Source: Baekduia alba | GTDB taxonomy: Bacteria; Actinomycetota; Thermoleophilia; Solirubrobacterales; Solirubrobacteraceae | Assembly (NCBI RefSeq): GCF_028416635.1 | Contig: NZ_CP114013.1 | Span: 1,550,001 to 1,614,000 of the forward strand | Direction of reading: 5' to 3' | DNA length: 64,000 nucleotides | In this document: positions 22,742 through 59,218 of the stretch, piece after piece | How positions within the stretch are numbered: position 1 is the first letter of the stretch | How the letters are laid out: each line of letters starts with the position of its first letter | Program-made: the position numbers and the translations under genes | Notes under the pieces: model-generated | What the model was told of the DNA's origin: nothing | Databases searched by the model: none | What the model saw: only the letters and a program-made list of their open reading frames with translations

Positions 22742-23376
22742 AGGCCCGCAAGGTCAAGGGCGTCGACCCCGACGGCGTGGCCGTCGACGAGGTCGCGAAG
22801 ATCGTCGCCGTCCGGCTCGACGAGCTGTGCTCGTTCATGCCGGCGGGGCGCGACCCCGCCGCGTTCCACACGCTGCACGACATGCGCATCGCGGCCAAGC
22901 GGCTGCGCTACGTGCTCGAGCTCTTCGCGCCGGCCTTCGGGCCCTACGCGCGCGACGCCGCCAAGCAGGCCAAGAAGCTCCAGGACGTGCTCGGCGAGAT
23001 CCACGACTGCGACGTCACGCGCCCGCGCGTCGCGGCGGTCGGCAGCGACCTGCGCGCCGAGGACGCGCGGTTCGTCCGCGGGCTCGCCGAGCCGGGCGCC
23101 AAGGACCTCGACCCGGCGCTCGCCGCCCAGGCGCCGCATCGCGCCGCCTACCGCGGGCTGCAGACGCTCGACGTGGCGTTGGGCGCGCGGCGCGAGCTGC
23201 TCTTCGAGCGGTTCCTGGACCGCTGGGACAAACTGGAGCGCGACAGCTTCCGACAGCGCCTGGAGCAGGCGCTCGGCGAGCGCCCCGACGCGGGTGACCC
23301 GATCACATCGCGTTCACACGACGGTAACGGCGCAGGGCCGGCTCAGCCCTTACCGTCGGAGGAGTCCCCGGCATGA
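22738..23376 (+). CDS. CHAD domain protein 2
   Basis: 212 residues. The second CHAD-type bundle: TLHDMRIAAKRLRYVLELF and AKQAKKLQDVLGEIHDCDVT. Overlapping its neighbours on both sides (GTGA at 22738, ATGA at 23373) it probably forms a heterodimeric CHAD unit with protein 1. The C-terminal ~40 residues (PDAGDPITSRSHDGNGAGPA) look unstructured, and their DNA carries the PHO box of ppk1. A fission of one ancestral two-bundle CHAD gene is the likely origin (inference). Confidence 0.85.
   Translation: MKARKVKGVDPDGVAVDEVAKIVAVRLDELCSFMPAGRDPAAFHTLHDMRIAAKRLRYVLELFAPAFGPYARDAAKQAKKLQDVLGEIHDCDVTRPRVAAVGSDLRAEDARFVRGLAEPGAKDLDPALAAQAPHRAAYRGLQTLDVALGARRELLFERFLDRWDKLERDSFRQRLEQALGERPDAGDPITSRSHDGNGAGPAQPLPSEESPA
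23301..23333 (+). promoter_or_regulatory. PHO box before ppk1
   Basis: Three contiguous 11-mers GATCACATCGC, GTTCACACGAC, GGTAACGGCGC, inside the 3' end of the CHAD 2 gene. A TACCGT hexamer (23351-23356) follows after 17 nt. GACGGTAA/TTACCGTC inverted repeat (23320-23327 and 23350-23357) overlaps both. Confidence 0.6.
23358..23364 (+). promoter_or_regulatory. Ribosome binding site of ppk1
   Basis: GGAGGAG 8 nt before the ATG at 23373; one of the strongest sites in the window, decides the start. Confidence 0.7.
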
Positions 23377-25544
23377 ACCCCGATCCGCAGCTCACGCAAG
23401 AGTCGATCCGCGCCGTCGAGGCGCACGAGGAGCCGGCTCCCCAGCCCTCCGACCTCGACGCGCCCGAGTTGTACATCAACCGGGAGCTGTCGTGGGTCGA
23501 CTTCGACGACCGCGTGATGCAGCTCGCCGAGGACCCGGCCCAGCCGCTGCTGGAGCGCTGCAAGTTCGCCGCGATCTTCGAGTCCAACCTCGACGAGTTC
23601 TTCATGATCCGCGTCGCCGGGCTGCACGACCAGGTCGACGCCGGGATCACGGCGCCCAAGCTCGACGGCCGCACGCCGTCGGAGACGATCGACGCGATCC
23701 GCGCGAAGGTGATGGACCTCAAGGAGCGCCAGTGCAGGACGCTGTCGCACGACCTGCGCCCGTCGCTGGCCGAGCACGGCATCCGGCTGGTGTCGGTCGA
23801 GGACGTCTCCGAGGACGCGCGCCGCGCGCTGGACCACCGCTTCCGCCGCCAGATCTTCCCGGTGCTCACGCCGCTGGCCGTCGGCCTCGGCCGGCCGTTC
23901 CCCTACATCTCGAGCCTGTCGCTCTCGCTGGCGGTCCTGGTCCGCGACCCGGTCTCCGGCCTGGTGACCTTCGCGCGCGTCAAGGTCCCGAAGGAGATGC
24001 TCCCGCGGTTCGTCGCGCTGGAGGACGAGCCGACGACGTTCGTCCCGCTGGAGGAGCTGATCGCCGCCAACCTGGAGGCGCTGTTCCCCGGGATGGAGAT
24101 CGTCGAGCACGGCGTGTTCCGCGTGACCCGCGACGCCGACTTCGAGATCTCCGACGAGGCCGACGACCTCCTGACCGCGGTCGAGGACGAGCTGCGCCGC
24201 CGCCGCTTCGGCGAGGTCGTGCGCGTCGACATCGAGGCCGGCATGGCCGATGGGCTGCGTGACGCGCTGACCGAGGCGCTGGAGGTCGAGGACCGCCAGG
24301 TCTACGAGGTCAACGACCTGCTCGACCTGACCGACCTGTGGCAGATCGTCGGGCTCAAGGGCTTCGACGACCTGCGCGACACGCCGTGGCAGTCGGTCAC
24401 CCAGCCGCGGCTGCGGCCCGAGGAGCACCACGCCAAGGCCGACATGTTCGCCGCGATGCGTTCGGGCGACATCCTGGTCCACCATCCCTACGACTCGTTC
24501 TCGTCGTCGGTCGGGCGCTTCGTGGAGCAGGCCGCCAACGACCCGGACGTCCTGGCGATCAAGCTCACGATCTACCGCACGTCCGACGACACGCCGCTCG
24601 TGCCCGCGCTGATCCGCGCGACCGAGCGCGGCAAGCAGGCCGTGTGCCTGGTGGAGCTCAAGGCGCGCTTCGACGAGCGGGCGAACATCGAGTGGGCGCG
24701 CAAGCTGGAGGAGACGGGCGTCCACGTCGTCTACGGCCACCCGGCGCTGAAGACGCACGCCAAGTGCATCCTCGTGGTGCGCCGCGAGGGCGACGGGGTC
24801 CGGCACTACCTCCACGTCGGGACCGGCAACTACCACCCCAAGACCGCGCGGCTGTACACCGACTTCGGGCTCTTCACGACCGACGAGCGGCTGGGCTCCG
24901 ACGTCGCCGACATGTTCAACTTCCTCACGGGCTACGCGCGGCCGCGCCGGTACCGCAAGGCGTTGATCGCGCCCGACCACCTGCGCGACGGGATCCTCGA
25001 GGAGATCGAGAAGACGATCGTCGTCCATCAGGAGGGCAAGCCGGCGCGGATCCAGATGAAGATGAACTCCTTGGTGGACCGCGCGTGCATCAAGGCGCTG
25101 TACCGCGCGTCGCAGGCGGGCGTGCCGGTCGAGCTGAACATCCGCGGGATCTGCTGCCTCGTTCCGGGCGTGCCGGGCGTCAGCGAGAACATCCGCGTCG
25201 TGTCGATCGTCGGGCGGTTCCTGGAGCACTCGCGGGTCTACGCCTACCAGCGCGGCGACGAGCAGCTGGTGCAGATCGGCTCGGCCGACCTGATGCCGCG
25301 CAACCTCGACACGCGCGTCGAGCTGGTCGTGCCGGTCGAGGATCCGGTGCTGCGCGACGACCTGCTCGACACGCTGGAGCGCGGGTTCGCCGACGACACG
25401 CACGCGTGGGACCTCGACGCCGACGGGCAGTGGACGCGCAGGGACCGCGACCCGAACGAGCCCGAGCCGCGCGACCTGCAGCGCGAGCTGATGCTGGGCC
25501 ACACCGCGCGCGCCGCCGAGCGCGATCCGTCCAGCACGTCCTGA
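23373..25544 (+). CDS. ppk1: Polyphosphate kinase 1
   Basis: 723 residues, full length. N-terminal domain LYINRELSWVDFDDRVMQLA and SNLDEFFMIRVAGL, head domain FPVLTPLAVGLGRPFPYIS, then catalytic C1/C2 domains: HPYDSFSSSVGRFVEQAA, KLTIYRTSDDTPLVPAL, the phospho-His region YLHVGTGNYHPKTARLYTD, and SADLMPRNLDTRVEL. It reversibly moves the gamma phosphate of ATP onto polyphosphate. It overlaps CHAD 2 (ATGA) but also has its own PHO box and ribosome binding site, so it can be induced alone on phosphate starvation. Confidence 0.97.
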   Translation: MNPDPQLTQESIRAVEAHEEPAPQPSDLDAPELYINRELSWVDFDDRVMQLAEDPAQPLLERCKFAAIFESNLDEFFMIRVAGLHDQVDAGITAPKLDGRTPSETIDAIRAKVMDLKERQCRTLSHDLRPSLAEHGIRLVSVEDVSEDARRALDHRFRRQIFPVLTPLAVGLGRPFPYISSLSLSLAVLVRDPVSGLVTFARVKVPKEMLPRFVALEDEPTTFVPLEELIAANLEALFPGMEIVEHGVFRVTRDADFEISDEADDLLTAVEDELRRRRFGEVVRVDIEAGMADGLRDALTEALEVEDRQVYEVNDLLDLTDLWQIVGLKGFDDLRDTPWQSVTQPRLRPEEHHAKADMFAAMRSGDILVHHPYDSFSSSVGRFVEQAANDPDVLAIKLTIYRTSDDTPLVPALIRATERGKQAVCLVELKARFDERANIEWARKLEETGVHVVYGHPALKTHAKCILVVRREGDGVRHYLHVGTGNYHPKTARLYTDFGLFTTDERLGSDVADMFNFLTGYARPRRYRKALIAPDHLRDGILEEIEKTIVVHQEGKPARIQMKMNSLVDRACIKALYRASQAGVPVELNIRGICCLVPGVPGVSENIRVVSIVGRFLEHSRVYAYQRGDEQLVQIGSADLMPRNLDTRVELVVPVEDPVLRDDLLDTLERGFADDTHAWDLDADGQWTRRDRDPNEPEPRDLQRELMLGHTARAAERDPSSTS

Positions 25545-45890: not shown

Positions 45891-45934
45891 GTTCACCGCC
45901 TGTTCACGTCTGGATCACTGAGCGGTCACAGTTG
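45891..45934 (+). promoter_or_regulatory. Four-unit PHO box before the TIM-barrel gene
   Basis: Contiguous 11-mers at 45891, 45902, 45913 and 45924: GTTCACCGCCT, GTTCACGTCTG, GATCACTGAGC, GGTCACAGTTG. All four keep the TCAC core. CAGGAT (45952-45957) follows after 17 nt and ends 6 nt before the GTG at 45964. Confidence 0.75.
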
Positions 45935-45963: not shown

Positions 45964-46833
45964 GTGACGATCGAGCTCGGCACTCGCCTCGGCCTCAGCG
46001 TCCATCGCGATCAGTGGCCCACGACGGCGCTGCTCGACTCCTATGAGTCGGCAGGCCTGAGCTGGGTGCAGATCCACACCCCGCCGCGCCCCATGCTGGC
46101 CGACCGGGAGCGGCGTCGCCGTCACGCTCGTGCGCTGCGCGCCGCCCTGGCTCCTCACGGCCTGCGGCTCGTTCTCCACGGCCCCGACGATCTCGTCGCC
46201 GGGACCCTCGAGCAGGACCGGGCCTTCGACGGGTTGATGGACTACGCGGCGGAGGCGGGTGCGGAGCTCGTCGTCTACCACGGCGCGGGCTTCACAGCGG
46301 CCGAGGAGCGCTCGCTGCGGCGCTTCGCCGCGCGGGCGGAGGCCCTGGACGTCGTCATCGCGGTGACGAACGTCGCGCCGATGTGGCCGTCGTCGCCGGA
46401 CCCGTCGCGCGCCGGCTACGACCCGCTCGCCGTCCGGGACCTCGTCCGCCGGCTCGGCTCACCGGCGGTCGGCATGCTGCTCGACGTCGGCCACGCGCAC
46501 CTGACCGCGTCGCTACGCGGCGGGAGCGCGGAGCGCGCGGTGCGCGCCGTGCTCGACGACGTCGTCCTCTTCGGCGTGCACGACAACCTTGGCGCTCGGC
46601 GCCACGACCTCGGGGCTCCCGGGGTCGACCCGCTTCGTCTCGACCTCCACCTGCCGCCCGGTGCGGGCTGCCTGCCCTGGGATCGCCTCGGCCCGCTGCT
46701 GGCCGACCACCGAGCACCGCTCATGCTCGACGTGGACCGCGCCCACGGCGTGGCGCCGGCGGCGCTGGCGGCCGGCGCCGCCGCGCTTCTGCGACGCGCG
46801 GCGGCGCTGGCCGCTCCAGCCGCGGCGGCCTGA
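45964..46833 (+). CDS. TIM-barrel sugar-phosphate isomerase/endonuclease IV-like protein
   Basis: 289 residues of the xylose-isomerase-like TIM-barrel superfamily (AP_endonuc_2). It starts IELGTRLGLSVHRDQWPT. Metal-type positions are in LVLHGPDDL (His), ELVVYHGAGFT (His), VTNVAPMW, MLLDVGHAHL (Asp, His) and LFGVHDNLGARRHDLG (His), with LMLDVDRAHG near the end. The usual Glu ligand in strand 4 (here VAVTNVAP) is not obvious. Its PHO box suggests a role in phosphate starvation, e.g. on phosphate esters or nucleic acids. The substrate is unknown. Confidence 0.72.
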   Translation: MTIELGTRLGLSVHRDQWPTTALLDSYESAGLSWVQIHTPPRPMLADRERRRRHARALRAALAPHGLRLVLHGPDDLVAGTLEQDRAFDGLMDYAAEAGAELVVYHGAGFTAAEERSLRRFAARAEALDVVIAVTNVAPMWPSSPDPSRAGYDPLAVRDLVRRLGSPAVGMLLDVGHAHLTASLRGGSAERAVRAVLDDVVLFGVHDNLGARRHDLGAPGVDPLRLDLHLPPGAGCLPWDRLGPLLADHRAPLMLDVDRAHGVAPAALAAGAAALLRRAAALAAPAAAA

Positions 46834-48430: not shown

Positions 48431-48799
48431 ATGACCACGCAGACCACAGCCTCAGCAAGTGAGCGGATCACCGCCGAAGTCACGTCCTGGCCCGGCGTCA
48501 GCGCCGGCTTCGGCCGGCGCGGGGAGTGGGCGTTCAGGGTCGGCACGCGGGAGATCGGCCACCTGCACGGCGACCATGTGGCCCACTTCGGCTTCCCCAA
48601 GGACGTCTTCGACGAGCTCTTCGCCGCCGGCCGGATCGTCCACCATCCGGTCTTCCCCGACCGCCGCGGCCCGGGGGCGCGGCGGATCGAGGACGACGCG
48701 GACGTGGAGGACGTGATCGCGCTCCTGCGCGAGCAGTACGAGCGCGTGGCTAGCCGGCCGTCGCCCGCTGATAGCGACGGATCGCCAGCGGCACGGTGA
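48431..48799 (+). CDS. DUF5519 (luciferase-family) protein
   Basis: 122 residues. SERITAEVTSWPGVSAGFGR, GTREIGHLHGDHVAHFGFPK, DVFDELFAAGRIVHHPVFPD, EDVIALLREQYERV: the pattern of DUF5519, small proteins annotated as luciferase-family without proven activity. The conserved HLHGDHVAHF holds His that could bind metal. ATG 48431 is chosen since it lies 7 nt after the -10; ATG 48422 overlaps it. Its SoxR-like operator suggests response to redox-active compounds or nitric oxide. The last 50 bp overlap the DrrB-type gene on the other strand. Confidence 0.75.
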   Translation: MTTQTTASASERITAEVTSWPGVSAGFGRRGEWAFRVGTREIGHLHGDHVAHFGFPKDVFDELFAAGRIVHHPVFPDRRGPGARRIEDDADVEDVIALLREQYERVASRPSPADSDGSPAAR

Positions 48800-49585
48800 C
48801 GGCGAGGATCGCCAGCGACCAGGCGATCGCCGACACGGCCGGGTGATGCAGCGGCCAGGGCGTGTCGGCGCCGACGGCGGAGGGGTTGCCGAACAGGTCG
48901 CGCAACGCCGCGACGACCGAGCTGAGGGGGTTGTAGTCGGCGAGCGTCCGGACGAACTTGTCCATGCCCTGGGTCGGAACGTAGGAGTTGGCCAGGAACG
49001 TCAGCGGGAACAGCACCACGAGGCCGAGGCCCTGCGCGGCGTCGGGCGCCCGGACGAGCATCCCGACGAGCGTGCCGAACCACAGCATGGCCAAGGTGAA
49101 CAACATGAGCACGCCAAAGCCGGCGGCCGCGTGCCACACGTCGGTGTGGATGCCCCAGCCGACGATCAGGCCGCTGCCGACCAGCACCACCAACCCGATC
49201 AGCGCGGACGCGAAGTCCGCGAGCACGCGGCCGCTCAGGACCGCCGATCGCGCCATCGGCAGAGCGCGGAACCGGTCCACGACGCCGGTGTGCAGGTCCT
49301 CGGCCATCGACGTCGCCGCGCCGATGAACGTGAAGGCCATGGTCTGGGCGAAGATCCCGGCCATCAGGAACTCCTTGTAGTCGCCGCCGCCGGGGATCGC
49401 GATCGCGCCCCCGAAGATGTAGGCGAAGAGCAACACGAACATCAACGGCTGAACGGTGACGTCGAGCAGCTTCTCGGGCACGTAGCGGACGTGCGTCAGG
49501 TTGCGCTGGGCGACGGTGAAGCCGTCGGCGACGGCCCACTTCAGCTTCGCGACCATGCGGCCGGCTTGCGAGCGCTCTGCGCGAG

Positions 49586-49589
<4 letters not shown>
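48750..49589 (-). CDS. ABC-2 permease (DrrB-type)
   Basis: 279 residues, six helices. N-terminal LTHVRYVPEKLLDVTVQPLM, then MFVLLFAYIFGGAIAIPGGG, the loop GVVDRFRALPMARSAVLSGR typical of DrrB, and LGLVVLFPLTFLANSYVPTQ. Partner of the ATPase at 49586-50347, from which it overlaps 4 bp. Daunorubicin-type drug or lipid exporter. Confidence 0.92.
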
Positions 49590-50347
<758 letters not shown>

Positions 50348-51312: not shown

Positions 51313-51356
51313 GTTCACCTCCCGGTCACATCATGTTGGCCGGCCGTTCACAGAAG
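51313..51356 (+). promoter_or_regulatory. PHO box before the PHP-glycosyltransferase gene
   Basis: 11-mers at 51313, 51324, 51335 and 51346: GTTCACCTCCC, GGTCACATCAT, GTTGGCCGGCC, GTTCACAGAAG; the third is degenerate. A GAGGAT hexamer (51370-51375) follows and ends 10 nt before ATG 51386. Confidence 0.7.
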
Positions 51357-51385
51357 GCCCTGCAAACCTGAGGATTCTGCCGTGC

Positions 51386-53677
51386 ATGACCGCGCGTACG
51401 AGCCGGGCCGACCTGCACTGCCACTCGACCGCCTCGCAGCTGTCGAAGCTCGGGGTCCAGCGCGCGCTCGGACTTCCCGAGTGCGCGACGCCGCCGCACG
51501 AGGTCCTGGAGCTCGCGCTCGCGCGCGGCATGGACTTCGTCACGATCACCGACCACGACACGATCGCCGGCGTCCTGGAGATCGCGGGCGACCCGCGCGT
51601 CTTCATCTCGGTCGAGCTGACCTGCTGGTTCCGCGAGGAGCCGCAGGCCGTCCACGTGCTGTGCCTCGGGATCACGCCCGACCAGTTCGCCGAGCTGCAG
51701 GCCATCAGCAACTGCGTGGAGTCGGTCGCCGAGCACCTGCACGACCGCGAGATCGCCTGCGCGCTCGCGCACCCGTTCTACGCGGTCGAGGCGCCGCTGA
51801 CCCCGCGCCATCGCCGGCGGCTCGCGCAGCTCTTCCCAGTCTGGGAGGTCCGCAACGGCGCGCGGGCCCAGGAGCTCAACCTCCCCGCCTCCATCTACGT
51901 CGAGACGCACGGCGGCACCGGCGTCGGCGGCTCCGACGACCACGCCGGGGTCGACATCGGCCGCACGTTCACCGAGACGCCGCTCGCCGAGACGCCGTTC
52001 GCGTTCCTCCAGCACATCCGCCAGGGCCGGGCGCGCGCGGCCGGCGACCAGGGCAGCGCCGCCAAGTGGGCGCATGCCGCGATGGCGCTCGCCGTCCGCT
52101 CGCTCGACCACGACGGCGCGCGCCGGACCGAGGACGACAACCTGGATCCCGCCACCGTCCTGCGGATGGTCGAGCGCGTGATGAGCGACGGCGAGGCGCG
52201 CAGCGGCGCGATGGGCGCCGACCTCCAGCCCGCCGACGCCCGCGGGCTGCTGCGCGCCTGGCTCGACGCGGTCGACCTCGGCCACCTCGGCAGCGCCGAC
52301 CTGCTCGCCGCGATGCAGGACGACGAGTTCCGCCACGCCGACCTCTTCCGCCGCGCGCGCCGCACCCACGAGCGCAAGCTCGCCCGCGTGGTCGACGAGA
52401 TCGTCGCGGGCGTCGGCGCGCACGGCGCCCAGGGCCTCGCCGCGGGCGCCGCGAACCTCTTCGACGCCTGCGTCGCCGCGATCCCCTACGCGCCGGCCGC
52501 CGCCTTCCTGGGCAAGGAGAAGTCCAAGCTCACGCCGCGCGAGGACGGCGCGCCGCGGCGCGTCGCGCTGGTCGCCGACGGCGTCGGCGGGATGCACGGC
52601 GTGACGCACACGCTCGCCGAGCTGCGCCACCGCGGCGTGCCGGGCTTCGAGGTCGAGGTCGTCTCCACCGACCCGATCGCCGACCGCCGCCTCGGCGCGG
52701 TCGCCGAGGTCGAGGTTCCCTTCTACGCGGGCCTGCAGGTCGGCGTGCCGAGCCTCCCGACGATCGTCGAGGCGCTGGCCGAGGGCCGCTACGACCTCGT
52801 CCACCTCTGCTCGCCGGGCCCGGCCGGCATCGCCGCGCTGCTGACCGCGCGCGTCATGGACCTGCCGGTGCTCGGCAGCTACCACACCGAGCTGGCCGCC
52901 TACGCGGGCGTGCGCTCCGCCGACCCGATGTTGGAGGCCTTCGCCCAGGCCGCCATGTCAATGTTCTACGCCCAGTGCGAGGTCGTGCTGTCGCCGAGCG
53001 AGGCGAGCGACGCGGTGCTCGGCACGCTCGGCATCGACGCCGACCGCGTCGGCCGCTGGGACCGCGGGGTGGACGTCGACCGCTTCTCGCCCGACCGACG
53101 CAAGGACCATGCCTTCCAGGGCGAGGTCAACGTCCTGTACACGGGCCGGCTGACGCGGGAGAAGGGCGCCGACCTGCTGGCCGACGCGTTCCTCGCGGCG
53201 CGCCGCCGCGACCCGCGGCTGCACCTCGTCCTGGCCGGTGGCGGCCCCGAGGAGCACGTCCTGCGCGAGCGCCTCGGCGAGCACGCGACGTTCCTGGGCT
53301 GGTTGGAGGGCGACGCCCTGGCCGACGCCTACGCGTCCGCCGACCTCTTCCTCTTCGCCAGCCGCACCGACACCTTCGGGCAGGTGCTGCTGGAGGCGCA
53401 GGCCAGCGGCCTGCCGGTCGTCGCGGTCGCCGAGGGCGGTCCGTGCTCGATCGTCGAGGACGGCGTGACCGGCCGGCTGGTCGCGCCCGACGCGCGGGCG
53501 CTCGCCGACGCGGTCGTCGCGCTCGCCGCCGACCCGGACGCGCGCGCCCGCCTCGCCGCCGCCGCCCGGAGCGCGGTCGCGCAGCGCACCTGGGACCGAG
53601 CGCTCGAGCGCCTCGCCGCCGGCTATCGCCGCGCGCTGGACGGCGCGGCGGCTCGCGAGGTGCGCCATGCCGCCTGA
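51386..53677 (+). CDS. PHP-domain phosphoesterase fused to family 4 glycosyltransferase
   Basis: 763 residues. PHP part ~1-300: SRADLHCHSTASQLSKLG (metal His), VTITDHDTIAGV, CALAHPFYAVEAP (His), VGGSDDHAGVDIGRTFTE. From ~390 a GT4 fold: VALVADGVGGMHGVTHTLAEL (donor-site Gly loop), LYTGRLTREKGADLLADAFL, LVLAGGGPEEHVLRERL, SRTDTFGQVLLEAQASGLPV (E-x7-E). The middle (~300-390) is helical. It could both add a sugar and remove a phosphate from an acceptor or product. Relatives are glycolipid mannosyl/glucosyltransferases (inference). First gene of a PHO-box-led cluster; overlaps the next by 11 bp. Confidence 0.85.
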   Translation: MTARTSRADLHCHSTASQLSKLGVQRALGLPECATPPHEVLELALARGMDFVTITDHDTIAGVLEIAGDPRVFISVELTCWFREEPQAVHVLCLGITPDQFAELQAISNCVESVAEHLHDREIACALAHPFYAVEAPLTPRHRRRLAQLFPVWEVRNGARAQELNLPASIYVETHGGTGVGGSDDHAGVDIGRTFTETPLAETPFAFLQHIRQGRARAAGDQGSAAKWAHAAMALAVRSLDHDGARRTEDDNLDPATVLRMVERVMSDGEARSGAMGADLQPADARGLLRAWLDAVDLGHLGSADLLAAMQDDEFRHADLFRRARRTHERKLARVVDEIVAGVGAHGAQGLAAGAANLFDACVAAIPYAPAAAFLGKEKSKLTPREDGAPRRVALVADGVGGMHGVTHTLAELRHRGVPGFEVEVVSTDPIADRRLGAVAEVEVPFYAGLQVGVPSLPTIVEALAEGRYDLVHLCSPGPAGIAALLTARVMDLPVLGSYHTELAAYAGVRSADPMLEAFAQAAMSMFYAQCEVVLSPSEASDAVLGTLGIDADRVGRWDRGVDVDRFSPDRRKDHAFQGEVNVLYTGRLTREKGADLLADAFLAARRRDPRLHLVLAGGGPEEHVLRERLGEHATFLGWLEGDALADAYASADLFLFASRTDTFGQVLLEAQASGLPVVAVAEGGPCSIVEDGVTGRLVAPDARALADAVVALAADPDARARLAAAARSAVAQRTWDRALERLAAGYRRALDGAAAREVRHAA

Positions 53678-54809
53678 GCTCGCGCTCCTCGAAGGCGGAG
53701 CGGCCGGCTCCGCGGGGCTTCGCGTCGCCCGCCCGGCGCCGCTGCGCGTGGCCGACGTCGCGCTCTTCTACGGCGAGCGCTCCGGCGGCATCCGGACCTA
53801 CCTCGACGCCAAGGCCGAGCACGCGGTCCGCCACCCCGACGAGCTCGACCACCACATCCTCGTCCCCGGCGCGAAGGCGCGCCACGAGGGCGGTCGCCAC
53901 GAGCTGCCCTCGCTGCGCGTCGTGGCCGCCAACGGCTACCGCGTCCCGCTCGGCGCCGGTGCGTTGAAGGAGACGCTGCGCGCGCTGAAGCCCGACGTCG
54001 TCCTGCTGCACGACCCGTTCTGGTGGCCGGTCGACGTCATCGCCTGCGCGCGCGAGATCGGCGCCCGCACGGTCGCGGTCCACCACGGGACGAGCAACCT
54101 GGAGGCCGCGTCGCTGCCCGGCCCGTCGCGCGTCTACGCCCCGCTGCTGCGGCGCTGGCTGCGGCGCTCCGGCCGGCACGTCGACGCGGTGATGAGCAAC
54201 GTCGACACCATGGCGGACTTCGGGCGGCTGGCGACGATGCCGCTGCGCCTCGGCGTCCACGAGGCGTTCCGCCCGCGGCCGGAGGCCCGGCGCGGCGACC
54301 ATGTGCTGTATGTCGGTCGCCTGTCGCGGGAGAAGGGCGTGCTGGAGCTCCTGGAGGCCGCCGCGCGCAGCGCGGACCCGTGGCCGCTGCGCATCGTCGG
54401 CAGCGGCCCGCTCGAGGAGACGCTCCGCACCCGCGCGCGCCGGCTCGGCCTGGCCGCGCGCATCAGCTTCCGGCCGCACGCGCGCGACCGCGTCCGGCTG
54501 GCCCACCGCTACGCGAGCGCGCGCTGCGTCGTCATGCCCGGCGAGCACGAGACGTTCGGGCTCGTCGCGCTGGAGGCCGCCGCCTGCGGCACGCCGGTCG
54601 CGGCCTGCTCGACGGCGCCCGCGGTGCACGCGATCGGCACGCTCGGCCACGGCTTCGTCCCCGCCGACCCCGACGACCTGGACCGCGCGATCGGCGAGGC
54701 CTACCACTCCGAGCACGACGCGCGGGAGGCGGCGATGATCGCCTGGCGCCACCGCTGGGACCGCGTCTTCCGCGCCGAGGCCGAGTCGCTGCGCGACCTG
54801 GTGGGCTGA
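53667..54809 (+). CDS. Glycosyltransferase family 4
   Basis: 380 residues. Acceptor half: LFYGERSGGIRTYLDAKAEH and LHDPFWWPVDVIACAREIG; donor half: LYVGRLSREKGVLELLEAAA, LRIVGSGPLEETLRTRAR, ISFRPHARDRVRLAHRYASA, GEHETFGLVALEAAACGTPV (E-x7-E), DPDDLDRAIGEAYHS. GT-B retaining enzyme on an activated nucleotide sugar. It overlaps the PHP-GT gene, so both act on one lipid or glycan; sequential sugars on a diacylglycerol or inositol lipid is the likely setting (inference). Confidence 0.9.
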   Translation: MPPELALLEGGAAGSAGLRVARPAPLRVADVALFYGERSGGIRTYLDAKAEHAVRHPDELDHHILVPGAKARHEGGRHELPSLRVVAANGYRVPLGAGALKETLRALKPDVVLLHDPFWWPVDVIACAREIGARTVAVHHGTSNLEAASLPGPSRVYAPLLRRWLRRSGRHVDAVMSNVDTMADFGRLATMPLRLGVHEAFRPRPEARRGDHVLYVGRLSREKGVLELLEAAARSADPWPLRIVGSGPLEETLRTRARRLGLAARISFRPHARDRVRLAHRYASARCVVMPGEHETFGLVALEAAACGTPVAACSTAPAVHAIGTLGHGFVPADPDDLDRAIGEAYHSEHDAREAAMIAWRHRWDRVFRAEAESLRDLVG

Positions 54810-54813
54810 GGCG

Positions 54814-55539
54814 ATGGCCCGGCGCGGCGGCATCATCGCGGTGTCGCTGCACGACGTCGAGCCGGCGACGTTCGAGCGCTGCGCGCTGATCCGCGACTGG
54901 CTCAACGACCACGGCGTCGACCGCGTCACGCTGCTCGTCATCCCGGCGCCGGACCTGCATCCGTTCCACGACCGCCGGCCGGACATGGCGGACTGGCTGG
55001 AGGAGTGCGCGCGCGGCGGCGACGCGATCGCCCAGCACGGCTTCCAGCACCGCCAGTCGCGCCGCGTGCACGGGCCGCGCCAGCTCGTCGCGCGGCTGCA
55101 GGCCGGCGACGCCGCGGAGTTCGTCGGCCTCGACGGCGACGAGACGCGCCGCGCGGTCCTCGCCGGCCGGCGCGTGCTCAAGCTCGCCGGCATCCAGCCC
55201 CGCGGGTTCGTCGCGCCGGGCTACGCCTACACCGGGGCCCTGCGCGCGACGCTCGCGACGACGTTCGAGTGGTGGGCCGGCATCGGCCGCCTGCACCGCG
55301 CCGCCGACGACCGCACGACGACCGCGCCCGCGCTGACGCTCGGGACGAGCACGCGCTTCAAGCGCTGGACGTCGCCCGGCGTCGTGCGCGCCGGCGCGCT
55401 GCTGTCGGGCGACCTGCTGCGCCTCGACCTCCATCCGTCCGACCTCGACCACCCGCGCGGCGTCAGCGCGGTCGAGCGCGTCCTGCGCCGGGCGCACGAC
55501 CGCAGCGCGGTGACCTACGACGAGCTCGCCTTGCGCTGA
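54814..55539 (+). CDS. DUF2334 polysaccharide deacetylase-like protein
   Basis: 241 residues. Starts IIAVSLHDVEPATFERCAL (Asp of motif 1), TLLVIPAPDLHPFHDR, then AIAQHGFQHRQSRRVHG (metal His pair), GFVAPGYAYTGALRATL. The catalytic site of NodB-type enzymes is recognisable. It is 4 nt after the glycosyltransferase stop. Probably removes an acetyl from the product glycan or glycolipid; no signal peptide is visible, so it may act inside. Confidence 0.82.
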   Translation: MARRGGIIAVSLHDVEPATFERCALIRDWLNDHGVDRVTLLVIPAPDLHPFHDRRPDMADWLEECARGGDAIAQHGFQHRQSRRVHGPRQLVARLQAGDAAEFVGLDGDETRRAVLAGRRVLKLAGIQPRGFVAPGYAYTGALRATLATTFEWWAGIGRLHRAADDRTTTAPALTLGTSTRFKRWTSPGVVRAGALLSGDLLRLDLHPSDLDHPRGVSAVERVLRRAHDRSAVTYDELALR

Positions 55540-56991: not shown

Positions 56992-57681
56992 CTACTGGAT
57001 CGGCGCGACGTCCCCGGTGGTCGACTCGGTCGTGTCGGCCGGGATGTGGGTCTGGCCGCCGCGGGCCGACTTCGGGCAGCCGCGCGGACGGCCCAGGTCG
57101 AACGGACCGGCGATGTACTGCTGGGCCTTGCCGGCGGAGACCGACGCGAACGTCACGACGAGCAGCGGGTCGACGCGCGGCTCCGCGCAGACGTCGCCGT
57201 CGACCGTGAACGTGGACTTCACGACGTGCCAGTTGCCGGTGACGGCGCCGGTGCAGTTGATGCCCCAGCCCGGCTGCTCGCCATTGCAGGAGAGCGCATC
57301 GGTGCCCAGCGGCTCGAGCGTCTTCGGGTCGGAGCCGAAGACCTCGGTCTCGAAGGCGGTGGCCTCCTTGTCGGGCACGATCGAGTAGCCCGTGATCGCC
57401 TGCGAGCAGGCGAAGGTGTAGGCCACCACGCCGCTGTCAGGATCGTCCGCGTCGGCCTTGCCCTTGTCGATGTGGCCCTTGCAGAGCGTGTTGTTGGGGT
57501 TCTGGTCAGCGACGGACTGCGGAGCCGAGTGGTTCAGCAGGATCGCGGCGGCGAGGGCGGCGGCGAGCACGACCAGGGCGAGACCAAGTCGCGACCGCAG
57601 GCGCGAGACGGCGACGTTCAACTTCAAGACCTCCATGTACAGGGTGATGCGGATCGGGCGAGGCTTCCGGGCCGACCGCAA
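56992..57681 (-). CDS. Membrane-anchored exported protein, PHO-box controlled, unknown function
   Basis: 229 residues from a TTG. N-terminal membrane anchor LGLALVVLAAALAAAILLNH (~32-51), then an exported part with six cysteines spread over it (TLCKGHIDKG, FACSQAI, LSCNGEQ, INCTGAV, VCAEP, RGCPKS), fitting three disulfides. A GGAGGA is 10 nt before TTG 57681, which doubles as the -10; ATG 57636 is an alternative start. No family recognised. Its PHO box suggests a secreted or cell-surface role on phosphate starvation. Confidence 0.7.
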   Translation of the reverse strand: MRSARKPRPIRITLYMEVLKLNVAVSRLRSRLGLALVVLAAALAAAILLNHSAPQSVADQNPNNTLCKGHIDKGKADADDPDSGVVAYTFACSQAITGYSIVPDKEATAFETEVFGSDPKTLEPLGTDALSCNGEQPGWGINCTGAVTGNWHVVKSTFTVDGDVCAEPRVDPLLVVTFASVSAGKAQQYIAGPFDLGRPRGCPKSARGGQTHIPADTTESTTGDVAPIQ

Positions 57682-57713: not shown

Positions 57714-57757
57714 GCGGTGTGACCGCGAGGTTGCGCCGCCGTGAACGATTGGTGAAC
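57714..57757 (-). promoter_or_regulatory. PHO box before the exported protein
   Basis: Minus strand 11-mers from 57757, 57746, 57735 and 57724: GTTCACCAATC, GTTCACGGCGG, CGCAACCTCGC (degenerate), GGTCACACCGC. Confidence 0.7.
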
Positions 57758-57762
57758 GAGGG

Positions 57763-59130
57763 TTAGCTTCCGGCATCTTCGGAGGGGTCCCAGGCCGCGT
57801 ACACCTTCGGTCCGAAGGCCTTCAACTTGGTCTCCGCGGCGTAGCCGAGCGGGTCGAGGCCGAAGAGGTCCTCGATCGACTTCAGCAGCGCGAACGGGTC
57901 GTACGGCGCGTTCACGGTGGCGCCCGGCGTGACGAAGGGGGAGAGCAGGAGCGCGCCGACGCGGCCGCCGCCGGCCTCGGTGTCGTCCGGCGCGCCGGCG
58001 TCGAACGTGACGACGACCAGGCCGCCGTCGGCGTACGCCTTGGAGTCCAGGATTGCCGGCAGCGTCGTCTTCAGCCACGCGTCGGCGTCGGCCAGCGACG
58101 TCGACCCGTCGTGGGCGGGGCCGGGCAGGATGTAGGAGAACGTCGGCGCGCTGTCGGTGTCGGCGGCGTCGGTCGCCAGCGCGTCGAGCTCGGCAAGCGA
58201 CGGGCCGCACTCGGCGACGCCCGTGATCGTCGTGAACCGGAGGAACGGGTTGCGCGGCGCCTGCTCCGGTGGCCGCGTGCAGGGGTCGTCGCCGGGCTGG
58301 AGGCCCGCGGTCGCGCCTTCGACGTAGGCCTTCCAGGTGCGGCCGAGGCCGGTGAGCTGGTCGGGGAGCGTCTGCGTCTGGTCGTCGAACGGGCCGGCGG
58401 CGTCCTTCTGGCCGCCGAGCAGCGCGACGCCGCCGGCCGCCGGGTCGTGGCCGGCCGCGTGGTACCAGGGCAGCAGCGTGCCCTTGTCGCGCAGCTCGCC
58501 GGCGAGGTACGGCGCGCCGCCGGCGGCGCCGGCGCCGAACGTCTCGGCGTAGGAGTGGCCGGTGAGCGCGACGACCCAGACGTGCTTGACGGCGGGAAGC
58601 CTGGGCGCGGGCGTGGCGGGCTCCTCCGCGGCGGGCGCGGGCGCGTCGTCGCTCGCCGGGGCCGGCACGGGCGCGGTCTCCGGCTCCGGCTCCGACTCCG
58701 GCTCCGACTCCGGCTGTGGCTCGGGCGCGGGGCTCTCCTCCTCGACCGGTGCAGCGGGCGCGGGGTCGGAGGCGGGCGCCTCCGGCTCCGGCGTCGGCGC
58801 GGGGACGACCGGCGCGGCCGCGAGCGGCACCGCCGCCGGGGCCTGGGCGACGATCGTCAGGCGCGACCGCGCGCCCGCGTCGGCGGCCGGCGCCCCCGGT
58901 CCGGCCGCGTCTCCGAGCACGACGCCGAACGCGAGGACCCCGAGGACGAGCGCCGCCGCGATGCGCGGCGACGGGAGCGCTGGACCGACCCCTTCATCTT
59001 GGTCGACCACCGAATGGTCGCCCACCACCATCGCCTTCCAGTCCAGCCGCGGCGGGCCGTTGCGGGTCCCGCACTCCAGGCAGTAGCGCTGGTCGGCGGC
59101 CAGGGGCGATCGGCAGGTTGCGCAGGGCAT
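57763..59130 (-). CDS. Membrane-anchored phosphoesterase with N-terminal zinc ribbon
   Basis: 455 residues. N-terminal zinc ribbon with Cys3, Cys6, Cys17, Cys20 (MPCATCRSPLAADQRYCLEC). A membrane helix at ~55-73 (RIAAALVLGVLAFGVVLGD). Pro/Glu-rich spacer (~100-170, PEPQPESEPESEPEPE). Then a phosphoesterase-family domain (~180-455) as in PF04185 acid phosphatases/phospholipase C: KHVWVVALTGHSYAETFG, AHDGSTSLADADAWLKTTLP, GGLVVVTFDAGAPDDTEAGG, GALLLSPFVTPGATVNAPYD. The usual nucleophile Thr/Asn pattern of PLC is not clear. Divergent from pstS across the pst PHO box; the same zinc ribbon begins the gene at 63786. Confidence 0.8.
   Translation of the reverse strand: MPCATCRSPLAADQRYCLECGTRNGPPRLDWKAMVVGDHSVVDQDEGVGPALPSPRIAAALVLGVLAFGVVLGDAAGPGAPAADAGARSRLTIVAQAPAAVPLAAAPVVPAPTPEPEAPASDPAPAAPVEEESPAPEPQPESEPESEPEPETAPVPAPASDDAPAPAAEEPATPAPRLPAVKHVWVVALTGHSYAETFGAGAAGGAPYLAGELRDKGTLLPWYHAAGHDPAAGGVALLGGQKDAAGPFDDQTQTLPDQLTGLGRTWKAYVEGATAGLQPGDDPCTRPPEQAPRNPFLRFTTITGVAECGPSLAELDALATDAADTDSAPTFSYILPGPAHDGSTSLADADAWLKTTLPAILDSKAYADGGLVVVTFDAGAPDDTEAGGGRVGALLLSPFVTPGATVNAPYDPFALLKSIEDLFGLDPLGYAAETKLKAFGPKVYAAWDPSEDAGS
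58679..58716. repeat. Tandem 6/12-nt repeat coding Pro-Glu/Ser-Glu spacer
   Basis: Alternating CTCCGG and CTCCGA hexamers; part of the low-complexity spacer of the phosphoesterase gene. Likely length-variable between strains. Confidence 0.6.
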
Positions 59131-59174: not shown

Positions 59175-59218
59175 GTTCACAACCCGTTCACGGGAAAGGC
59201 ACCAGCGCTTCACAAGGC
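59175..59218 (+). promoter_or_regulatory. PHO box of the pst operon
   Basis: 11-mers at 59175, 59186, 59197 and 59208: GTTCACAACCC, GTTCACGGGAA, AGGCACCAGCG (degenerate), CTTCACAAGGC. Lies 45 bp from the divergent phosphoesterase start, so it might serve both genes. Confidence 0.75.

What the first reader, a model, noticed from the sequence alone, without database searches (positions are those of the whole stretch)
51313..55539. PHO box before a PHP-glycosyltransferase, glycosyltransferase, deacetylase cluster: probable lipid remodelling on phosphate starvation
A PHO box precedes a gene that fuses a PHP phosphoesterase to a GT4, coupled to a second GT4 and a DUF2334 deacetylase. Many bacteria replace phospholipids by glycolipids when phosphate is scarce. 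A single protein with phosphatase and glycosyltransferase parts could remove a head-group phosphate and add sugar, a direct phosphate-saving step. The fusion and its control together look undescribed.
Basis: partly seen in the sequence, partly recalled or inferred. Interest (0 to 1): 0.82.

Follow-up and report, generated by a model that had tools for sequence, protein, structure and literature searches.

The report
Phosphate-starvation genes for a sugar lipid
A bacterium carries, behind a switch for phosphate shortage, a conserved three-gene cluster whose main enzyme joins a phosphate-removing part to a sugar-adding part; it probably helps make membrane lipids that need less phosphate, but this has not been tested in the laboratory.

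Summary
A PHO box (51313-51356) lies 73 bases before a gene that fuses a PHP phosphoesterase, a helical middle part and a GT4 glycosyltransferase (51386-53677), followed by a second GT4 and a DUF2334 deacetylase (to 55539).

The box is real. The strict pattern occurs 6 times in the 5.86 Mb genome, among others before pstS and phoA. It recurs upstream of 44 of 79 orthologs, against 11 of 437 other genes. In 18 of 58 orthologous loci phoU, ppk, ppx or pit genes lie nearby.

The gene order is kept in a distant family (fusion 36-41% identical) with similar boxes. The second GT4 and the deacetylase are closest to GpgS and GpgD, which make glucosaminyl-phosphatidylglycerol in Pseudomonas aeruginosa (PMC12713373). 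This supports a lipid product, probably with an aminosugar.

That the PHP part removes a lipid head-group phosphate is plausible, by analogy with PlcP-Agt, but untested. Modified phospholipid, soluble glycoside or wall polymer remain rivals.

Verdict: a new variant of a known kind (Pho-controlled lipid remodelling). The paper listings I saw describe neither this fusion nor its control.

The parts
51313..51356 (+). PHO box: four 11-base units at 51313, 51324, 51335 (degenerate) and 51346; first unit 73 bases before the ATG
   Evidence: conserved geometry (units at 0, 11 and 33) in orthologs
51386..53677 (+). PHP-GT4 fusion gene, 763 aa
   Evidence: orthologs
51386..52051 (+). PHP phosphoesterase part (residues 1-222); H11, H13, H57, E77, H90, H129, D184, H186 invariant in 42 sequences
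52052..52543 (+). helical middle part (about residues 223-386), no family named
52544..53650 (+). GT4 glycosyltransferase part (about residues 387-755), GT-B fold nearest MshA, SPS, BshA, PimA
53667..54809 (+). second GT4, nearest GpgS (GlcNAc-PG synthase model, 164.7 bits; cut-off 480)
54814..55539 (+). DUF2334 deacetylase, nearest GpgD model (94.7 bits; cut-off 280); HDVEP and HGFQH motifs intact
59175..59191 (+). PHO box before pstS (start probably ATG 59279, read from the translation): internal positive control
   Evidence: PstS family match TIGR02136 169.4 bits, below its cut-off of 206.6, and PF12849
23301..23328 (+). weaker PHO-box match (1 mismatch) before ppk (ORF 23373-25544): internal positive control

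Best explanation
The cluster is a PHO-regulon lipid-remodelling unit. When phosphate is scarce the PhoB/PhoP-type regulator binds the box and switches on the fusion gene, with the second GT4 and the deacetylase co-transcribed. Most likely mechanism: the PHP part hydrolyses a phosphate ester from a phospholipid-derived substrate, phosphatidate or a phospholipid head group, leaving a diacylglycerol. The GT4 part puts a sugar, perhaps GlcNAc, on it; the second GT4 adds a (further) GlcNAc; DUF2334 removes the acetyl group, giving a cationic aminosugar glycolipid that stands in for phospholipid. Shown: box, conservation, gene order, predicted folds, conserved metal and GT residues. Inferred: co-transcription (from packing), regulator binding (from the motif), and from homology the lipid acceptor, GlcNAc and deacetylation. 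Conjecture: that PHP acts on the lipid phosphate and hands its product to the GT part.
For: PHO control. Phosphate neighbourhood in 18 of 58 loci of 9 kb or more (for example transporter genes, phoU, ppx, [PHP-GT], ppk, DUF47, pit in L040 and L053). Lipid link: best NCBIfam matches GpgS (both GT4s; 130.1 and 164.7 bits) and GpgD; in the own genome the two stand at 132.2 and 162.6 bits, the next GT4 at 74.6. DUF2334 follows the fusion: 11 of the 12 class genomes with DUF2334 at E <= 1e-8 have it beside a PHP-GT gene; order kept in 6 of 6 clusters of a distant family. In 7 of 63 loci DUF2334 follows the fusion without a second GT4, so it may act on the fusion's own product. PHP ligand set invariant in 42 of 42; GT residues S659, T661, G665, E670 in 42 of 42 and D662 in 41. 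Precedent: PlcP-Agt with a Pho box, phospholipase C plus GT making glycolipids (PMC8528852, passages read); agt needed for glycolipids under low phosphate in Desulfovibrio (PMC5193443, passages).
Against: No biochemical data. All family scores named here lie far below the curated cut-offs, so acceptor and sugar are not fixed. PHP enzymes of known function act on nucleotides, histidinol phosphate or phosphotyrosine; I know of none acting on lipids (recalled). The Asp usual in PHP motif I (HxHSxxSD, recalled) is absent (position 18 is mostly E, Q, A or V), so metal loading may differ. 39 of 63 loci lack both partner genes, and of 12 such genomes searched whole one has a weak GpgD-model match. 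19 of 23 distant PHP-GT homologs have no box of 10/12 or better. Near the fusion in some relatives lie a cluster of glucosylglycerate-hydrolase-like genes (one member scanned: 138.7 bits, cut-off 550) and a cluster of GH31 genes (two members scanned), which would fit a soluble glycoside. Three of 11 DUF2334 relatives lost the Asp of HDVEP, and one of them also the HxxxH pair. Solirubrobacter deserti, which has the cluster (L042), shows no phosphate-free glycolipid in ordinary culture but phosphatidylinositol mannosides and an unidentified aminophospholipid (PMC10722151, passages).
Confidence: 0.5

Rival explanations
1. A GlcN-PG-type system: the GT4s glycosylate phosphatidylglycerol itself and DUF2334 deacetylates it. 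The product keeps its phosphate and serves to change membrane charge under phosphate stress; the PHP part trims something else or regulates.
For: Closest named relatives are GpgS and GpgD, which act on PG (PMC12713373, abstract and passages). An unidentified aminophospholipid exists in Solirubrobacter deserti, which has the cluster.
Against: Scores far below the equivalog cut-offs. PHO control fits a phosphate-saving product better than a phospholipid. The PHP part with its invariant ligand set would be unexplained.
Confidence: 0.17
2. A bifunctional synthase-phosphatase for a soluble glycoside: the GT4 part makes a sugar phosphate and the PHP part dephosphorylates it, as in sucrose-phosphate or glucosylglycerol-phosphate synthase/phosphatase fusions.
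For: GT-phosphatase fusions of that kind exist (recalled). Sucrose-phosphate synthase is a near structural match of the GT part (6kih, Z 36.6). Clusters of glucosylglycerate-hydrolase-like genes (11 loci) and GH31 genes (42 of 112 loci) are neighbours (one and two members scanned).
Against: The GT part scores best against GpgS, a lipid enzyme. Partner genes resemble lipid enzymes. PHO control is not expected for a compatible solute (recalled). Neither GH gene is seen between 48000 and 60000 of the window (by reading).
Confidence: 0.15
3. A phosphate-free wall or surface glycopolymer made in place of a phosphate-rich one, as teichuronic acid replaces teichoic acid in Bacillus under Pho control.
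For: Such a Pho-controlled exchange is described (PMC4415409, passages). GT4 enzymes often build polysaccharides. What look like ABC-exporter genes (48750-50347, minus strand, read, not scanned) lie upstream beyond the TetR gene.
Against: No polymerase or ligase gene among the three genes or the scanned neighbours. Lipid-type GT and deacetylase are the nearest relatives.
Confidence: 0.1
4. A mycothiol-like pseudodisaccharide route: GlcNAc transfer to a phosphorylated polyol, dephosphorylation by PHP, deacetylation by DUF2334.
For: MshA is the top structural match of the GT part (3c4q, Z 37.3, tied within 1 with sucrose-phosphate synthase), and the order transferase, phosphatase, deacetylase is that of mycothiol synthesis (recalled).
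Against: The GT part scores 92.6 bits against MshA (cut-off 462.5), while another gene at 1273080 scores 157.5. Mycothiol synthesis is not known to be under PHO control (recalled).
Confidence: 0.05

Closest known systems
PlcP-Agt lipid remodelling (Pseudomonas, rhizobia, marine bacteria)
   Same: Pho-box control; a phosphoesterase paired with a glycosyltransferase; product expected to replace phospholipid
   Different: There two separate proteins, and PlcP is a metallophosphoesterase of another family (family recalled); here a PHP part fused to the GT, plus a second GT4 and a DUF2334 deacetylase
GpgSDF, glucosaminyl-phosphatidylglycerol synthesis (P. aeruginosa)
   Same: GT4 followed by a COG3233/DUF2334 deacetylase; nearest NCBIfam models for both genes
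   Different: Scores well below the equivalog cut-offs; the gene after DUF2334 is a metallo-beta-lactamase/rhodanese protein, not a flippase; PHP-GT fusion and PHO box here; GpgS acts on a phospholipid
Alpha-monoglucosyldiacylglycerol synthases (NF049988)
   Same: GT4 family, diacylglycerol acceptor in the known enzymes
   Different: Only 42 bits against a cut-off of 400; no PHP part
PHP-family phosphoesterases (2anu, 3e38, PsfC, RNase AM)
   Same: Fold (Z 14-17) and most of the metal-ligand set (motif list recalled)
   Different: Fused to a GT4; motif-I Asp absent; substrate unknown

Membership tests
PHO regulon | 11-base direct repeats of the GTTCAC type upstream, shared with known Pho genes of the same genome | tested here: met
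   same motif before pstS, phoA and (weaker) ppk
PHO regulon | box conserved in orthologs above background | tested here: met
   44 of 79 at 11/12 or better against 11 of 437 other upstream regions; 46 of 79 in a 250-base scan, 3 of 79 on the reverse strand, 0 of 79 inside the gene. Not met in 19 of 23 distant homologs at 10/12
PHO regulon | induction at low phosphate and regulator binding | not testable with these tools
   needs expression and binding experiments
PlcP-Agt pathway | PlcP-type phospholipase C | not tested
   No PlcP sequence or model was compared. The phosphoesterase part has the PHP fold, which from recalled knowledge is not that of PlcP, so membership is not claimed
PlcP-Agt pathway | glycosyltransferase acting on diacylglycerol | not testable with these tools
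   GT4 fold met, acceptor unknown
GpgS / GpgD equivalogs | score above the NCBIfam cut-off | tested here: not met
   164.7 of 480 and 94.7 of 280 bits: homologs, not equivalogs
PHP phosphoesterases | PHP fold | tested here: met
   Z 17.0 to 2anu (185 residues, rmsd 3.2) and to 3e38 (196 residues, rmsd 3.6), on a predicted model
PHP phosphoesterases | conserved metal ligands of the four motifs | tested here: inconclusive
   H11, H13, H57, E77, H90, H129, D184, H186 invariant in 42 of 42; the usual motif-I Asp is missing. The motif list is recalled; a profile search of solved structures found no alignment
MshA (mycothiol) | score above TIGR03449 cut-off | tested here: not met
   91 and 92.6 bits against 462.5

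The most novel reading that the evidence does not exclude
A single polypeptide exchanges the head group of membrane lipids: its PHP part strips the phosphate (or phospho-head group) from a phospholipid and its GT4 part glycosylates the diacylglycerol thus made. It would be a one-protein, independently evolved counterpart of PlcP-Agt, extended by a GpgS/GpgD-like pair to a cationic glucosaminyl glycolipid, as a standard phosphate-starvation lipid of Thermoleophilia.
Probability: 0.33. Interest if true: 0.83.

Novelty: new variant of a known kind. Interest (0 to 1): 0.62.

Why it matters
If right, it extends Pho-controlled lipid remodelling to the Thermoleophilia, soil Actinomycetota for whose low-phosphate lipids the searches made here listed no study, and it would give the PHP superfamily a first lipid role that I know of. 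It names one gene whose deletion or expression would test the idea directly, and a motif with which to read the PHO regulon of this class.

Tried and rejected
Box by chance: rejected. Sequence-only PHP assignment was weak, so structure was used; a profile search of the PHP and middle parts against solved-structure sequences found nothing at E <= 0.01. The whole-protein fold search was filled by GT-B folds; the PHP part with the middle part was therefore folded alone. The helical middle part was not folded by itself, so no statement on its kinship is made; folds absent from the lists are not thereby excluded. Box as a hairpin: single-strand folding is no better than shuffles (z 0.45). MshA membership: rejected. 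Glucosaminyl-diacylglycerol in print: one search of the library under four spellings gave no paper. A wider box pattern gave 8 more places in the genome against 2 in the control; I read the surroundings of two of the eight (L127, L128) and saw no classical Pho gene. Box in all PHP-GT homologs: rejected; among 23 distant homologs one reached 11/12 and three 10/12. In the distant family with DUF2334 four of six reach 11/12 and one more 10/12; the sixth, L146, could not be scanned there because its match began inside the gene, and scored 10/12 as L123. Three clusters of that family without a visible DUF2334 have none at 10/12 in 500 bases, but in one of them (L152) the contig ends right after the second GT4, so its DUF2334 may be missing only from the assembly. 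A taxonomy paper looked at for lipids of the group gave nothing of use (PMC6113628, passages).

Rows dropped and limits: L070 left out (too little upstream DNA; 79 of 80 loci scored). One search counted upstream regions with identical ends once (79 distinct of 80 loci). One search counted downstream partners, as found by tblastn with the window proteins, only in loci with a complete gene and 1.5 kb of room (63 of 80), and neighbours only in loci of 9 kb or more (58 of 80); neighbour families are BLAST clusters of which one or two members were scanned. Orthologs are related, so counts are not independent events. Background genes came from a simple gene caller of my own, and some are true Pho genes. 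The phylum search scored at most 4 candidates a genome. The 42-sequence alignment holds the window protein and 41 of the 80 locus relatives; the DUF2334 alignment 11 sequences.
Full report
WHAT IS THERE. The finding's coordinates are correct. The DNA before the fusion gene reads as four 11-base units, GTTCACCTCCC, GGTCACATCAT, GTTGGCCGGCC and GTTCACAGAAG, from 51313 to 51356, with the ATG at 51386. Three genes follow with short overlaps or gaps: 51386-53677, 53667-54809 and 54814-55539. Pfam and NCBIfam give GT4 in the first two proteins and DUF2334 in the third; the PHP part is weak by sequence (PF13263 at 19.5 bits, NF038032 at 38 bits, both below cut-off). Structure settles it: the AlphaFold2 model of the fusion has mean pLDDT 88.6 and pTM 0.86. 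Its C-terminal part matches MshA, sucrose-phosphate synthase, BshA and PimA (Z 37.3, 36.6, 35.4 and 33.5). Its N-terminal part, predicted with the middle part but without the GT (mean pLDDT 78.5, pTM 0.80), matches PHP phosphoesterases 2anu and 3e38 at Z 17.0.

IS THE PHO BOX REAL. In the window the pattern GKTCACNNNNNGKTCAC with one mismatch allowed has 9 matches against 0.99 expected. In the whole 5.86 Mb genome GTTCACNNNNNGKTCAC occurs 6 times and its backward reading 0 times. The six stand before alkaline phosphatase phoA, a xylose-isomerase-like TIM barrel, the fusion gene, a 229 aa secreted-looking protein, pstS, and a receiver-less PhoB-type DNA-binding protein that is divergent from a DUF47/PhoU-like gene. 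A weaker match stands before ppk (window 23301). This is the same kind of repeat that is described for Streptomyces (GTTCACC; PMC4415409, passages). A wider pattern adds 8 places, with 2 in the control; the two of these that I read showed no classical Pho gene.

CONSERVATION. A scan of genome contigs gave 80 loci with a relative of the PHP-plus-middle part (278 of 372 candidate stretches confirmed, best 80 kept; 54-82% identity). Of 79 scored, 46 carry a box of 11/12 or better within 250 bases upstream, 3 on the reverse strand and 0 inside the gene. With predicted starts and 200 bases it is 44 of 79, against 11 of 437 upstream regions of other genes. The conserved columns are at units 0, 11 and 33, as in the window. 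Of 58 loci of at least 9 kb, 18 have PhoU, DUF47, Ppk, Ppx or Pit genes within about 6 kb, some in a row: transporter genes, phoU, ppx, [PHP-GT], ppk, DUF47, pit (L040, L053; families assigned by clusters of which one or two members were scanned).

DISTRIBUTION. In 149 genomes of the class, 47 have a match at E <= 1e-20, each in an open frame of 636 aa or more (my count from the table). In 396 genomes of the phylum, 17 match at E <= 1e-10: 14 in the class and 3 in one other family (which scored at most 4 candidates a genome). Twelve of 149 class genomes have a DUF2334 relative at E <= 1e-8, and 11 of these have it on the same contig and strand within about 4 kb of the PHP-GT gene. Reading six of them from a distant family (fusion 36-41% identical) shows the order PHP-GT, GT4, DUF2334 in 6 of 6, with boxes of 11/12 in four and 10/12 in one; the sixth scored 10/12. 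Three clusters of the same family without a visible DUF2334 have no such box in 500 bases, though in one of them (L152) the contig ends before the place. Among the 80 nearer loci the partner genes are optional: of 63 with room downstream, 12 have both, 7 only DUF2334, 5 only the GT4 and 39 neither. Of 12 genomes from the 'neither' group searched whole, 1 has a weak match to the GpgD model (23.1 bits). The fusion is thus the core, the other two an extension.

WHAT IT DOES. The second GT4 and DUF2334 have GpgS and GpgD as nearest curated models (164.7 and 94.7 bits), and the GT part of the fusion also ranks GpgS first (130.1 bits); all lie below the cut-offs of 480 and 280. In the own genome the two GT4s score 162.6 and 132.2 against the GpgS model, the next of 29 matches 74.6. 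GpgS adds GlcNAc to phosphatidylglycerol and GpgD deacetylates it (PMC12713373, abstract and passages). A lipid acceptor and an aminosugar product are therefore the best guess. The PHP ligand set is invariant in 42 of 42 sequences, as are S659, T661, G665 and E670 of the GT motif (D662 in 41), so both parts look active; the usual motif-I Asp (recalled) is missing. The window's DUF2334 has its HDVEP and HGFQH motifs; 3 of 11 relatives lost the Asp and one of them (L010) also the histidine pair. The known parallel is PlcP-Agt, where a phospholipase C and a glycosyltransferase under a Pho box turn phospholipids into glycolipids (PMC8528852, passages), and agt of Desulfovibrio, needed for glycolipids at low phosphate (PMC5193443, passages). 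The step that PHP does the work of PlcP is an inference without direct evidence.

AGAINST. No assay exists. PHP enzymes of known function act on small phosphates or nucleic acids (recalled). A cluster of GH31 genes (42 of the 112 loci held, mostly divergent from the fusion gene; two members scanned) and, in 11 loci, a cluster of genes like glucosylglycerate hydrolase (one member scanned) lie near, which a soluble-glycoside model would explain. Lipids of Solirubrobacter deserti in ordinary culture include phosphatidylinositol mannosides and an unidentified aminophospholipid but no phosphate-free glycolipid (PMC10722151, passages); this fits either an inducible glycolipid or a GlcN-PG.

NOVELTY. 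The rows listed by the library searches (in 13, 14 and 47 only the best rows are listed) show no paper on a PHP-GT4 fusion under PHO control; one paper mentioning both domains concerns another superfamily (PMC12419801, passages). The library lacks most subscription journals. I rate this a new variant of a known kind, Pho-controlled lipid remodelling.

Noticed in passing
L118:1552-1911 (+), just outside the window (G000:C1 about 1616094-1616453): A 119 aa protein that is only a PhoB-type DNA-binding domain (no receiver), with its own PHO box and divergent from a DUF47/PhoU-like gene; a cluster of similar short genes occurs in 8 related loci, in 7 of them beside a DUF47 gene (one member scanned).
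   Followed up: partly
window 45891-45929 and ORF 45964-46833: A multi-unit PHO box before a xylose-isomerase-like TIM barrel protein (PF01261), not a usual Pho gene.
   Followed up: partly
window 57741-57757 (-) and ORF 56992-57681 (-): A strict PHO box before a 229 aa secreted-looking protein without any Pfam or NCBIfam match at the thresholds used.
   Followed up: partly
window 57763-59130 (-): A PF04185 phosphoesterase (weak acid phosphatase match in NCBIfam) divergent from pstS.
   Followed up: no
window 23301-23328: A weaker PHO-type repeat before ppk, polyphosphate kinase, ORF 23373-25544.
   Followed up: partly
L006:3581-5842 (-) and its cluster in 42 loci: A GH31 glucosidase gene, mostly divergent from the PHP-GT gene; a glucosylglycerate-hydrolase-like cluster in 11 loci.
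   Followed up: partly
L010:9493-10212: DUF2334 relative that lost its HD and HxxxH motifs (HGIEP, QNGFQL): perhaps a pseudoenzyme.
   Followed up: no
L006 (CAMCUD010000002.1): Record titled Bifidobacterium breve MAG, but its 71% identity and neighbour order match Solirubrobacterales (as in Svornostia abyssi, L011): probably a mislabelled bin.
   Followed up: no
L011:5986-9411: In Svornostia abyssi one open frame of 1142 aa runs through the PHP-GT and the second GT4; fusion or sequencing frameshift not resolved.
   Followed up: no
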